Below, piece after piece: positions 779-5,269 of a stretch of DNA of 64,000 nt (position 1 is the first letter of the stretch; every line of letters begins with the position of its first letter). This stretch comes from Leptolyngbya sp. SIOISBB (lineage in GTDB: Bacteria > Cyanobacteriota > Cyanobacteriia > Phormidesmidales > Phormidesmidaceae). The position numbers and the translations under genes were made by a program. A model generated the notes under the pieces. The model was not told the DNA's origin. It was given only the letters and a program-made list of their open reading frames with translations, and did not search any database. The stretch is taken from contig JAAHII010000001.1 in NCBI GenBank assembly GCA_010671905.1, forward strand, positions 7,092,026 through 7,156,025, read 5' to 3'.

Positions 779-956
779 TCATCAGGAGAGGCGATCGCCC
801 CTTAATCAGCGCTAAATGTCGGCGCTAACCGTGAGCCGCAAAAGATTACGGTGTATTGCAGATTGAGTGGACTCGCAACAAGGGTTAACGCCTTTGATTC
901 CCCTTGGGGGGATGCAAGCTAATCTTAGGGAGATGTTTTCCGGCGAGCTTTTTTCC

Positions 957-2059
957 ATGGCACTGCGATCGCCCTCCCAAAAGCTAACTTGGCCCAAAAC
1001 GACAGAACTGGTTGGTTTAGAACTGGCGTTGCAGGCAGCAGCCGACTCAGAACTCTATCCACAATATACGATTGGGCTGCATGCCTGGTTTTTGCAGCAG
1101 ATTCAGGCCTTCGATGCGAAACTTTCGGCGGCGTTGCATGACGATCAAGCCGAAAAGCCGTTTGCGATTACGGGGTTAGATGGGCAGTTTGTGGCTCAGA
1201 GTCGCCATTTACAACTGCAAGGGGGGAAGACCTATCGCTGGCGCGTGCAGGGATTTTCTAGAACAATGGCGGCGGGGCTGGCGACCTGGTTAAAGCAGGC
1301 CCCCCAAGAACTCGTTTTGAAGGATACGCCGCTGACGGTGCAGGGAGATACGCCTTGCCCTGCCTGCTAAGACTTATCGAGCCTTGGCCAAGGAGCCCCC
1401 GGCGGGCAATTCGCTGAGCCTAACGTTTACCAGCCCCTACCAGCTTTCGGAGTAAGGGACGTCACTTGCCATTGCCCTGGCCGCGCAATGTCTTTCACAG
1501 CTATCTGCGACGGTGGAATCTATTTTCCGGACAAGAAGTGCCTCAGGATGAGTTTTTGGACTGGGTAGAGGAGCATGTCGTTATACAGCGGCATCAGTTG
1601 CAATCGGTGAAAGTGGCAGCGGGTAAGCGCGGCTCGGTGACGGGGTTTACGGGGGCGATCGCCTATGCGCTTGACCGCAAAGCCCAGGCGAACGAAGATT
1701 TTTATCGCTTGTTTTTTACCCTCGGACGGCTCGCTCCCTATTGCAGCACGGGGCACAAGACCACTTTTGGGTTAGGAGAAACCGTGACGGGTTGGCACCT
1801 GAAGCAAGCGACGGTAGACATGCCGTCAACTCAAACGGTGTTAGCGGAGCGCATGGATGAGTTGACGACTCTGTTTAAGGCGCAGCGCAAACGGCAGGGG
1901 GGCGATCGCGCTCAAGCCACAGCGGAGAAATGGGCCACAGTGCTGGCGCGGCGAGAGTTGGGTGACTCGTTGCTCGACATTGCTGCCGATATGGATATGC
2001 CTTATGAAACGGTGAAAACCTACAGCAAGCTGGCACGGCGAGCTTTGAAAGACACGTGA
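957..2059 (+). pseudogene. cas6: cas6, CRISPR endoribonuclease, broken by two frameshifts
   Basis: Cas6 cuts the CRISPR transcript within each repeat to make crRNAs. The N-terminal part (to 1370) has the typical cyanobacterial Cas6 stretch LYPQYTIGLHAWFL. The C-terminal part (1466-2059) has FHSYLRRWNLFSG, then GFTGAIAY, a glycine-rich region and a C-terminal HTH-like tail (LARRELGDSLLDIAADM). Homology continues through the gap but needs two frame changes. An extra base near 1352-1362 leads into AKTYRALAKEPPAG, and an extra C in CCCC at about 1436-1439 restores SFRSKGRHLPLP. Both are +1 events in C-rich runs, so the gene is either a pseudogene or carries sequence errors. Start chosen at ATG 957; ATG 933 with AGGGAG directly before it and ATG 867 are alternatives. 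The CRISPR array begins 52 bp downstream. Confidence 0.8.
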
Positions 2060-2111
2060 TCGGCGAGCGGGGCAGTTTAGCTTAAGGCGATCGCAACCGC
2101 CAAAACAATTT

Positions 2112-2879
2112 GTTTCAATCCCCTTTCGGGGAATTGGGCCGTTGTGACTGGAAAGACACTATCCTTCTCGCGATCGCTGAGCGTTTCAATCCCCTTTCGG
2201 GGAATTGGGTCGTTGTGACGATCAAGGGCTCTCAGGTGGAGCGAGGCGACTTTATCGTTTCAATCCCCTTTCGGGGAATTGGGTCGTTGTGACTTACGGG
2301 TAGAGGATGATCCACCCGCATATGTCGTCGTTTCAATCCCCTTTCGGGGAATTGGGTCGTTGTGACGCCAATGATGTCTAACGGGAACTTAGTGGAGAAG
2401 ACCGAAAGTTTCAATCCCCTTTCGGGGAATTGGGTCGTTGTGACACTTAGCCGCTGCCGCCAACCAGATCGCCGACTCTGCGCTGTTTCAATCCCCTTTC
2501 GGGGAATTGGGTCGTTGTGACTTCTTTATCTAGGCAATCAGAAAACTGAACTGAGGTTTCAATCCCCTTTCGGGGAATTAGGTCGTTGTGACTCCCTGGC
2601 ACGGTAATTTCTGTTGATGCCGAGGGGGTTTCAATCCCCTTTCGGGGAATTAGGTCGTTGTGACCGCCGGCAACCACTGGCGACGTAACAGCGACTACTG
2701 TTTCAATCCCCTTTCGGGGAATTAGGTCGTTGTGACTGAAAGGAGCCATCGCTCTTTGCAGCAGCTGGTCGTTTCAATCCCCTTTCGGGGAATTAGGTCG
2801 TTGTGACGGATTTACCAGAACTGGTTTTTGTAGTTCTGGTGAGTTTCAATCCCCTTTCGGGGAATTAGGTCGTTGTGAC
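2112..2879 (-). CRISPR. CRISPR array, 11 repeats of 37 bp and 10 spacers
   Basis: Repeats start at 2112, 2183, 2257, 2330, 2408, 2485, 2556, 2628, 2700, 2771 and 2843, each 37 bp, beginning GTTTCAATCCCCTTTCGGGG and ending GTCGTTGTGAC. Spacers are 34, 37, 36, 41, 40, 34, 35, 35, 34 and 35 bp. The complement ends in GGGGATTGAAAC, the usual cyanobacterial repeat 3' end whose ATTGAAAC becomes the crRNA 5' handle, so transcription is leftward with the leader at the right. In agreement, the leftmost repeat is the degenerate one (GGGCC for GGGTC), as expected at a trailer end. Repeats 1-6 read AATTGGG and repeats 7-11 AATTAGG. A TCCCC/GGGGA hairpin sits in each repeat. No effector or adaptation genes are in the window. 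Confidence 0.97.
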
Positions 2880-3005
2880 GTCGGACTTTTGAAACGTATA
2901 AATTGTCAAGGTTCTGAACCCATTATGCGCGAATCTATGGGAATGCTCCTCTAATTTCATACTTTTTCACTAAGAGATATTTTTACTGATCCCTGAAACC
3001 CTTGT
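2880..3005 (-). promoter_or_regulatory. Candidate leader of the main CRISPR array
   Basis: This AT-rich stretch borders the least degenerate end of the array. Read leftward it contains TTGACA and TTTATAC just before the first repeat, and GTTTCAAAAG (plus strand CTTTTGAAAC, 2886-2895) exactly 6 nt from the repeat. The same decamer sits at the same distance from the second array (3616-3625). A further TGAAACCCTTGT at 2994-3005 also recurs at 3620-3631. The leader role is inferred from position, base composition and repeat polarity. Confidence 0.55.
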
Positions 3006-3419
3006 GTCAATGAGCTTTGCGCGATCGCGCGAACCCTCTTGCGTTGACTAAACGCTGAAACTCTCGTCTGGCAAATGCTTCAGGTGTCAGGAGGGCCGTT
3101 CACGCTCATACACCCATCAACCCACGCTCGGCTGAATCTAGTTCTGACTTCTTCGCAGGGCATAGGGGAGGGAGGGAAAAGGAAGAACGAAGAACGAAAA
3201 CCGAACTGTTAGTAATTCCTCTAACGCCCCACCAATAGCTCCTTTCACTTTTTGATCTTCCCTCTTCTTTCTTGAGTGCCGTTTCCGTCCCCGCGACTGG
3301 AAAAAAGAAAATTGAAAAATGAAGACCGAAGACGAAGAAACCTTTAGAAATTGCTCTCCTCCTTGGCCAGTCGTTCCTTATTCAAATTTTCATTCTTCTC
3401 TCTTCGCTTTTTTACTTCT
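3006..3419. other. Gene-free region with degraded repeat material and a diverged direct duplication
   Basis: No coding region is supported. Two diverged direct copies of about 135-150 bp can be seen (about 3166-3300 and 3301-3454). Each has a purine-rich half (GAAGAACGAAGAACGAAAA type), then TTAGTAATTCCTCT (3209) or TTAGAAATTGCTCT (3344), then a pyrimidine-rich half, and ends in a CRISPR-like GTTTCCGTCCCC or GTTTCCGCCCCC. The purine and pyrimidine halves are roughly complementary and could fold. A GGCTGAATCT fragment at about 3130 matches the 3' end of the second repeat family. GCGCGATCGCGC at about 3020 is a 12-bp palindrome. Confidence 0.4.
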
Positions 3420-3609
3420 GTTTCCGCCCCCTGGCAGGGAATTGCGGCTGAATCTATAGTCAAGAAGATATTCCTATTGATCGCTCCCAATTACAATTTT
3501 CGTCCCCTTGCGGGGAATTGAGGCTGAATCAAAAACTTGCTAACATGCTGGGCGATTTGCCTGACCTGAGTGACGTTTCCGTCCCCTTGCGGGGTGATAG
3601 AGTTTGAAC
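3420..3609 (-). CRISPR. Relic CRISPR array, second repeat family (3 degenerate repeats)
   Basis: Three 35-bp repeats at 3420-3454, 3496-3530 and 3575-3609 share GTTTCCGTCCCCTTGCGGGG. The first two end in GGCTGAATC and the third in AGTTTGAAC. Spacers are 41 and 44 bp. A truncated fourth copy (GTTTCCGTCCCC) lies at 3281. Read on the complement the repeats end in GGGGACGGAAAC, a form seen with cyanobacterial type III repeats, so transcription would be leftward. The repeats differ from one another at many positions, so this is a decayed array. It is distinct from the 37-bp family to its left. Confidence 0.75.
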
Positions 3610-3928
3610 CCCTGCCTTTTGAAACCCTTGTATGGTGAGGGTTGTAAGTAGCCATATGTAGTCGGCAATGATCACGGTGAGATTGCAGCGGCTTAGCTTC
3701 CGCTTGAGTCTGTTTTTGCGAATCCGAGCTTCTTTGAGGGGCGGAATTTTCACCCAATGACGGGAAATACACCCTGCGCCAGCACACCTTCATCCGCAGC
3801 GTATCGCTAGAGCACCTTGACCAGCTCGATGAGTTGCCGTGATCATCAGGCTTTGCAAACAGGGCGATCGCTTCTTGGTTGGTCGCTATATCCTGAGGCA
3901 GATCCCTTGCAATCTCACCTGAAATTCC
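3610..3928. other. Gene-free stretch with leader-like motif and a possible coding remnant
   Basis: CTTTTGAAAC at 3616-3625 matches the leader motif of the main array. About 3760-3841 reads as RQHTFIRSVSLEHLDQLDEL then stop. It looks like the C-terminal tail of a longer protein, perhaps of a Rpn/DUF4351-type transposon protein, but nothing intact precedes it. Otherwise no gene is supported. Confidence 0.3.
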
Positions 3929-4702
3929 GTGCTGCTAACTACTAGCCAACTTTTGCACCTGATCGCCCAAGCGACGCCTGCACCGCCTGCCCCGACCGCC
4001 GAAGTCGAACTGCTCAAAAACCAGTTGGAGTTTATCCTGCGGCTGAATACGGTCTTTTTGGGCTTTCTAGCGTTTCTAGGCGGTCTGCTCACCTGGTTTT
4101 TCAAAAGCAATTTGGATGATGCCAAAGAAATGGCTAGTCGCATGGTGCGCCAAGAGCTTACAGATCATATTGAGCCGCTGATTAAAGCCGAGGCGAGCAA
4201 TATCCAGCGCACCTTTCGCACCGAGCAAATCATCAGCAACACCGTGGTGGACTACTACATTCCGGTTTCACCAACCAAAGATCCCTTGGACTATCATCTG
4301 CTGCGAGGACGGGGCTTTCTCGATGTACGGCTTTGGCATCCCGATCGCAAACCCCAAGGACGTTGGGGCAGCGTATTAGTGATCGATTTGGTGAATTGTG
4401 ACCTGCTGGCCCTGCCTGAGATTGCCTCTCCCGAAGATGAAGTGCGCAAAGTCGGCTATCGAAAGCGCGATCAGCTGGTGAATGAGGTCATTCAAGGACT
4501 CATTGAACTGCGCATTGGCCGTCCTATTCTTGTCGTCTATGTTCGCCCCGGTATGGGCAGAATTGGGGCGATCGACCAACTCACTACCAATTTTCCTGAA
4601 GACATCAAGTACTATTCGTCAGCCAATACACCGGTAGCCTTGATGGGCGCAGTCGTCGATTCGGCTTATGTCGCGTATGGCGATCGGCAGTTTGCCGATT
4701 AG
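3929..4702 (+). CDS. Membrane-anchored protein of unknown function beside the CRISPR locus
   Basis: 257 residues from a GTG start. A short N-terminal stretch with an APPAP run is followed by one clear hydrophobic segment (about 35-60, FLGFLAFLGGLLTWFF), a charged, probably helical linker (about 62-105) and a globular domain of about 150 residues. The latter contains alternating hydrophobic strands (GSVLVIDLVNC, GRPILVVYVRPG, TPVALMGAVVDSAYVAYG), suggesting an alpha/beta fold exposed to the cytoplasm. I do not recognise the family. It is the only intact gene directly next to the CRISPR remnants, and membrane proteins are known to co-occur with type III CRISPR systems, but a CRISPR role is only a guess. 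Start is uncertain because no ribosome site is visible. Confidence 0.7.
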   Translation: MLLTTSQLLHLIAQATPAPPAPTAEVELLKNQLEFILRLNTVFLGFLAFLGGLLTWFFKSNLDDAKEMASRMVRQELTDHIEPLIKAEASNIQRTFRTEQIISNTVVDYYIPVSPTKDPLDYHLLRGRGFLDVRLWHPDRKPQGRWGSVLVIDLVNCDLLALPEIASPEDEVRKVGYRKRDQLVNEVIQGLIELRIGRPILVVYVRPGMGRIGAIDQLTTNFPEDIKYYSSANTPVALMGAVVDSAYVAYGDRQFAD

Positions 4703-5269
4703 GGGTTTTGTGAGAGGTGATTTTGGGGCACAAAAACACATTCGTGTACTTATACGGGCAATCTTCAAGCGCCTCTAGTTCGAAACTGTTCCACTTTTAG
4801 GAGCAGCTTTTGTCAAGCTTCCAGAAGCATAAAATCTCGGTGTCAATGGCTTTCACGAATTCGATGGATCTGAAGTGGCCCCCCAAAACTGAACAGGGCT
4901 ATAGGCGAGGTGGGTTCAATCACCAGCACTCAGGGGCAACCCACCCCGCTGCCCCCCTCCCAGGAGGGGAAATGTGATCCCGCTGTGCCTCAGGCCAAAT
5001 TGCGAAATTTATATAATCCTTATTCCTAAACGAATTTTTTGAGGGTGAGTTATGTCAAGCATGCTACCTAACATCTTCATATCTCCAAGCACAACTCTCA
5101 AATCTGCTGCCTAACTCCATGACTTCAGGATGTTAGACAGTGAAGTTGCTGTATTCAGCCTCAGAGAAGTGGGGATGATCCATCAAATTTGCAATGCACC
5201 AGCAGATCGATGAGGATGATTCTTCAGATCTGACGTTGGATACCCTAGTTAGGCTTCAAGATAGGAACT
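4703..5269. other. Gene-free region with a possible IS3-type end and a hairpin repeat
   Basis: No coding region found. TGAAGTGGCCCCCCAAAACT at 4871-4890, continuing GAACAGG, resembles the terminal inverted repeat of some IS3-family elements, but no partner end or transposase is present, so at most it is a solo relic. CCCTCCCAGGAGGGG at about 4955-4969 is a small hairpin of a type frequently seen between cyanobacterial genes. Confidence 0.3.

What the first reader, a model, noticed from the sequence alone, without database searches (positions are those of the whole stretch)
2880..3631. Two different CRISPR families share a leader motif at identical distance
CTTTTGAAAC lies exactly 6 nt after the last repeat in both the 37-bp array (2886-2895) and the relic 35-bp array (3616-3625), although the repeats differ. 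TGAAACCCTTGT also occurs at 2994 and 3620. This suggests a leader-anchoring or integration signal recognised by one shared Cas1-Cas2 machine.
Basis: seen in the sequence. Interest (0 to 1): 0.62.

Follow-up and report, generated by a model that had tools for sequence, protein, structure and literature searches.

The report
Phased integration boxes in CRISPR leaders
The short motif shared by two CRISPR arrays is part of a docking-type signal found just before the first repeat in most cyanobacterial CRISPR systems, and a second copy usually sits upstream at one of two distances that differ by one turn of the DNA helix, which suggests how these systems find the place to store new memories.

Summary
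CTTTTGAAAC lies exactly 6 nt from the last repeat in both window arrays. The 10-mer itself is only a sample of a wider signal.

In 94 non-redundant leaders, gathered around cas1 genes or repeats without using the motif, positions -20 to -9 before the first repeat carry AAGGnTTTCaaA in nine repeat groups. The group-averaged relative entropy is 5.8 bits, against at most 2.0 in 5000 random-phase nulls. Two further elements, at about -54 and -34, are also conserved.

The other repeated word, TGAAACCCTTGT at 2994, is a second upstream copy of the same box. Across leaders such copies lie 93.4±1.1 or 104.2±0.9 bp from the first box, one helical turn apart.

The 'one shared Cas1-Cas2' reading is not supported. 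The two window leaders belong to different classes, resembling the I-D and the III-D/RT-Cas1 leaders, whose Cas1 proteins in this genome are 33% identical. The box is found in other phyla with related Cas1 and is absent from three I-E leaders of the same cyanobacterial order. It therefore follows a Cas1 lineage.

Best reading: a Cas1-Cas2 docking site, probably on a folded leader. No function was tested. The window locus is a decayed copy of the CRISPR island on contig C2.

The parts
2112..2879 (-). 37-bp CRISPR array, 11 repeats (GTCACAACGACCYAATTCCCCGAAAGGGGATTGAAAC on the - strand); leader on the right
   Evidence: the five leader-side repeats share a C-to-T change, so spacers were added after it arose
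   Evidence: PWM score 7.3 at -22, clear maximum of nearby offsets; class-wide conservation
2910..2917 (-). middle element of the leader (-38 to -31, TCAGAACC)
   Evidence: conserved block at -38 to -30 across leaders
2920..2933 (-). upstream element of the leader core (-54 to -41, TTCGCGCATAATGG)
   Evidence: conserved block at about -55 to -44 across leaders
2992..3005 (-). distal box of the 37-bp leader (-126 to -113, ACAAGGGTTTCAGG), 104 bp from the proximal box
   Evidence: score 12.2; same place in relatives
3420..3609 (-). relic array: two GATTCAGCC-type repeats (3420-3454, 3496-3530) and one GTTCAAAC-type repeat (3575-3609)
   Evidence: matches to two different C2 arrays
3618..3631 (-). 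proximal box of the relic leader (-22 to -9, ACAAGGGTTTCAAA)
   Evidence: PWM score 13.6 at -22
3610..3655 (-). surviving 46 nt of the relic leader, homologous to the leader of the C2 III-D/RT-Cas1 array; the rest was lost by deletion
   Evidence: 3574-3655 matches L051:6747-6666 at 89%, then a jump to L051:6313-6214
852..3127 (-). segment about 87% identical to C2 (cas6, 37-bp array and leader)
   Evidence: blastn to L052:15821-12891

Best explanation
The shared motif is the proximal half of a CRISPR integration signal. A box, AAGGnTTTCaaA at -20 to -9, with two companion elements at about -34 and -54, marks the leader-repeat junction where Cas1-Cas2 inserts new spacers. In many cyanobacterial leaders a second copy of the box lies 9 or 10 helical turns upstream, on the same face of the DNA. 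I infer that the leader is bent or looped so that the two-fold symmetric integrase, or a partner protein, reads both copies and is thereby held at the first repeat. Shown: position, conservation, a second copy in phase, and association with one broad Cas1 lineage. Inferred: which protein binds, the loop, and any effect on acquisition. In the window, the 37-bp array has both boxes. The relic array keeps only the proximal box because the rest of its leader was deleted.
For: Cross-family conservation: box at -20 to -9, group-averaged relative entropy 5.77 bits against a null maximum of 2.03 over 5000 random-phase nulls. Held-out leaders: a 56-nt leader model peaks at the junction in 26 of 28 leaders, against 1 of 20 trailer ends. 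Distal box: with the scored group left out of the PWM, 81 of 126 best upstream hits fall in two narrow windows (12.6 expected; reversed and reverse-complement controls give 11 and 12). Box-to-box spacing is 93.4±1.1 (n=29) or 104.2±0.9 (n=33), 62 of 72 strong hits, and groups G4, G7 and G9 contain both spacings. Lineage: 8 of 13 leaders next to related Cas1 in other phyla fit the model, while three I-E leaders in the same cyanobacterial order do not. The window array acquired at least four spacers after a mutation in its first repeat. Known parallels: in cyanobacterial I-D systems three leader motifs raise spacer uptake and Synechocystis has no IHF (PMC10212523); in I-F, Cas2 contacts conserved inverted-repeat motifs in a folded leader (PMC12259127).
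Against: No acquisition or binding data for these leaders. The published I-D motif sequences (Kieper 2019) could not be read, so identity with them is unproved. The distal copy is rare in the I-D-like group G1 and in G6, was not seen in 13 non-cyanobacterial leaders, and is weak in the tested Synechocystis I-D leader. In group G3 the box overlaps a promoter -10 element. Leaders within a group share ancestry, so leader counts are not independent events.
Confidence: 0.62

Rival explanations
1. The box is the -10 part of the pre-crRNA promoter, with the -34 element as its -35 box, so transcription starts at the leader-repeat junction.
For: In group G3 a TATAAT-like hexamer sits at -13/-14, and the mapped start of Synechocystis CRISPR3 is 1 nt before the first repeat (PMC3575380).
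Against: No -10-like hexamer at that place in the other large groups, including those of both window arrays. Mapped starts of Synechocystis CRISPR1 and CRISPR2 are 213 and 124 nt upstream. A promoter does not explain a second copy in helical phase.
Confidence: 0.15
2. The box pair binds a cyanobacterial host DNA-bending or regulatory protein, which then recruits Cas1-Cas2 (as IHF does in I-E).
For: The leaders span Cas1 clades about 30-40% identical; the distal copy was seen only in cyanobacteria.
Against: The proximal architecture occurs in Chlorobiota, Nitrospirota, Nitrospinota and others with related Cas1 and is missing from I-E leaders of the same cyanobacterial order.
Confidence: 0.18
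3. Chance, or a local duplication between the two window leaders.
For: A 10-mer twice in 64 kb is only mildly rare (4 of 100 shuffles).
Against: Each leader has its own counterpart on C2 and the two do not align beyond the elements. The signal repeats in nine repeat groups and in held-out leaders.
Confidence: 0.02
4. The two arrays share the motif because one integrase serves both in trans.
For: 37-bp-type arrays lack an adjacent cas1 here and in the relatives checked, and must use, or once used, another system's Cas1.
Against: The box is shared far beyond these arrays. The relic leader matches the III-D/RT-Cas1 class, the 37-bp leader the I-D-like class; those Cas1 proteins are 33% identical.
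Confidence: 0.1

Closest known systems
Type I-D leader motifs I-III of Synechocystis (Kieper et al. 2019, as described in PMC10212523)
   Same: Cyanobacterial leader, several conserved motifs upstream of the first repeat that raise spacer uptake, no IHF in Synechocystis
   Different: Published for I-D; here shared by III-D/RT-Cas1 and other repeat groups, with a phased second copy. Motif sequences could not be compared (paper not held).
Type I-F leader inverted-repeat motifs read by Cas2 on an IHF-folded leader (PMC12259127)
   Same: Two leader motifs and a folded leader that together position the integrase
   Different: Here the two copies are direct repeats 93 or 104 bp apart; no IHF dependence known
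Sulfolobus islandicus I-A leader: Cas1-bound proximal motif (-25 to +7) and Csa3a-bound distal motif (-143 to -94) (PMC9456107)
   Same: Proximal and distal motifs at very similar distances; the distal one needed for efficient adaptation
   Different: There two proteins bind the two motifs; here both copies have the same sequence, suggesting one protein
Type II-A leader-anchoring site
   Same: Leader-side integration signal
   Different: Directly abuts the repeat (own knowledge); here the box is 8 or more nt away

Membership tests
Leader docking signal for Cas1-Cas2 | Fixed position upstream of the first repeat across unrelated arrays | tested here: met
Leader docking signal for Cas1-Cas2 | Present at the leader end, absent at the trailer end | tested here: met
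   26 of 28 leaders against 1 of 20 trailer ends
Leader docking signal for Cas1-Cas2 | Follows the Cas1 lineage rather than the host | tested here: met
   present with related Cas1 in other phyla, absent in I-E of the same cyanobacterial order; small samples
Leader docking signal for Cas1-Cas2 | Mutation lowers spacer acquisition | not testable with these tools
   needs an acquisition assay
Kieper I-D motifs I-III | Same sequences as the published motifs | not testable with these tools
   paper not held; the Synechocystis I-D leader has AAGG at -20
sigma-70 promoter of the pre-crRNA | -10 hexamer at the box | tested here: not met
   only group G3 (50% of leaders) and one unassigned leader; none in the window's groups G2 and G8
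II-A leader-anchoring site | Motif abutting the repeat | tested here: not met
   conserved core ends at -9; weaker conservation at -3 and -2
Structured hairpin leader | Compensatory changes between the -34 and -15 arms | tested here: not met
   own complementarity 4.88 against 4.55 swapped, and no excess when the loop may vary

The most novel reading that the evidence does not exclude
Cyanobacterial CRISPR leaders of several types carry two direct copies of one integrase box set 9 or 10 whole helical turns apart. The integrase would bind both through an IHF-independent DNA loop, and evolution would move the distal site only by whole turns.
Probability: 0.4. Interest if true: 0.8.

Novelty: new variant of a known kind. 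Interest (0 to 1): 0.62.

Why it matters
How Cas1-Cas2 finds the leader-repeat junction in I-D and III systems without IHF is open. A sequence-defined box with a phased second copy, shared across types, gives a direct test: mutate it, or shift it by half a turn against a full turn. It also offers a practical mark for array orientation and leader finding, and suggests why arrays without their own cas1, such as the 37-bp array here, could be served by integrases of other systems.

Tried and rejected
Hairpin or dyad: the -34 and -15 elements are inverted half-sites in consensus (CCTT...AAGG), but complementarity within a leader barely exceeds that between leaders, and not at all when the loop length may vary, so no structural covariation. 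Promoter: kept only for group G3. Local duplication: rejected. Search of genome contigs for the exact 37-bp repeat found nothing; relatives came from a looser search of whole genomes. Kieper 2019 and Santiago-Frangos 2021 could not be read. One family search failed on a frame error.

Full report
**What is in the window.** CTTTTGAAAC lies at 2886-2895 and 3616-3625, each 6 nt after a repeat. TGAAACCCTTGT lies at 2994 and 3620. The repeats read ...GAAAC on the minus strand and the five rightmost 37-bp repeats share a C-to-T change. Both arrays are therefore read leftwards with their leaders on the right. I count leader positions back from the first repeat on the minus strand.

**Origin of the locus.** The window lies on contig C1 of an 8.3-Mb, two-contig genome. 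Window 852-3127 is about 87% identical to C2, including cas6, the 37-bp array and its leader. 3574-3655, 3659-3758 and 3759-4697 match three separate pieces of the C2 region that holds a III-D system with an RT-sized Cas1 (710-aa frame). The window copy is a shrunken remnant. Its relic array joins repeats of two C2 arrays and keeps only 46 nt of leader. The two window leaders each have their own counterpart, so local duplication is excluded.

**Motif-blind leader collection.** I took Cas1 hits in 50 genomes of the order and 146 of the class, fetched the DNA around most of them, detected arrays, oriented them by repeat end, and extracted leaders. Seven 37-bp-type arrays come from the own genome and relatives, and three arrays from the Synechocystis plasmid pSYSA. 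94 leaders were non-redundant.

**Proximal box.** Gapless alignment on the repeat shows conservation at -20 to -9 (A A R G g T T T c a A A), at -38 to -30 and at about -55 to -44. Leaders fall into nine groups by repeat end. With each group given equal weight, the box holds 5.77 bits. Random phasing of the groups never exceeds 2.03 bits in 5000 trials. In 28 held-out cyanobacterial leaders a 56-nt model peaks at the junction in 26, against 1 of 20 trailer ends. Runs of 10 or more identical bases at one offset occur in 20 of 4276 cross-group pairs, against 1 in a control stretch.

**Distal box.** Scanning upstream with the proximal matrix gives strong hits in 51 of 99 leaders (5 expected), clustered at -128 to -124 and -116 to -114. 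With the scored group left out of the matrix, 81 of 126 best hits fall in the two windows (12.6 expected); reversed and reverse-complement matrices give 11 and 12. The windows were chosen after seeing the data, so these controls carry the weight. Box-to-box distances are 93.4±1.1 (29) and 104.2±0.9 (33), 10.7 bp apart, close to one helical turn. Groups G4, G7 and G9 contain both. In the held-out set all 14 strong distal hits lie in -127 to -124 or -116 to -114.

**What it follows.** The Cas1 proteins beside these leaders fall into clades roughly 30-40% identical to one another; in this genome the I-D Cas1 and the III-D RT-Cas1 are 33% identical. Leaders near related Cas1 in Chlorobaculum, Nitrospira, Nitrospinae, Brocadia and a gammaproteobacterium carry the proximal box; 8 of 13 fit the full model, none has the distal copy in the expected windows. 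Three I-E leaders from genomes of the same cyanobacterial order lack the box. These samples are small, but they favour an integrase-lineage signal over a host-wide one. The 37-bp leader scores best with its own group and next with the I-D-like group G1; the relic leader scores best with G2, the III-D/RT group.

**Mechanism.** A box at a fixed distance from the insertion point, absent from trailers and tracking Cas1, is most simply a docking site for Cas1-Cas2. A second copy at whole helical turns suggests that both are read on one face of a bent or looped leader. Parallels are the I-F leader, where Cas2 contacts inverted-repeat motifs in a folded leader, and the S. islandicus leader, with proximal and distal motifs at -25 to +7 and -143 to -94. 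Cyanobacterial I-D leaders are known to contain three motifs that raise spacer uptake. The promoter reading holds for group G3, where a TATAAT-like hexamer overlaps the box and the mapped Synechocystis CRISPR3 start is at -1; it fails for the groups of both window arrays. Binding, looping and effect on acquisition are inferred.

**Limits.** Array orientation relies on repeat ends. Grouping by repeat end is coarse. Leaders within a group share ancestry. The key earlier papers on I-D motifs and on motif phasing could not be read, so part of this may already be described for I-D.

Noticed in passing
window 867-2059: cas6 is split over two frames (CRISPR_Cas6_N at 867-1370, Cas6 at 1466-2059); the C2 copy (L052:14615-15493) reads through the break. 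Its C-terminus matches a PADLOC HTH model often fused to Cas6.
   Followed up: partly
L050:3436-4286 (C2): Chimeric array: leader-side repeats ACTTTCAAACCC..., trailer-side repeats GATTCACTCTC..., with an atypical leader end; like the window relic it suggests fusion of arrays through the shared 3' half of the repeat.
   Followed up: no
G004, G006 and G045 (L181-L187): 37-bp-type arrays without an adjacent cas1; G004 holds no Cas1 except a I-E type protein. They may depend on another system's integrase or be static.
   Followed up: partly
L052:13147-14562 (C2): The sister 37-bp array has a 2-nt deletion between box and first repeat, a natural test of spacing; its first repeat differs from the next ten.
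   Followed up: no
group G3 leaders, e.g. L163 and L180:30106: A TATAAT-like hexamer overlaps the box, so promoter and integration signal may share sequence.
   Followed up: partly
window 4954-5020: 67-bp stretch 80% identical to L055:19740-19676 near the I-D locus, perhaps a dispersed repeat.
   Followed up: no
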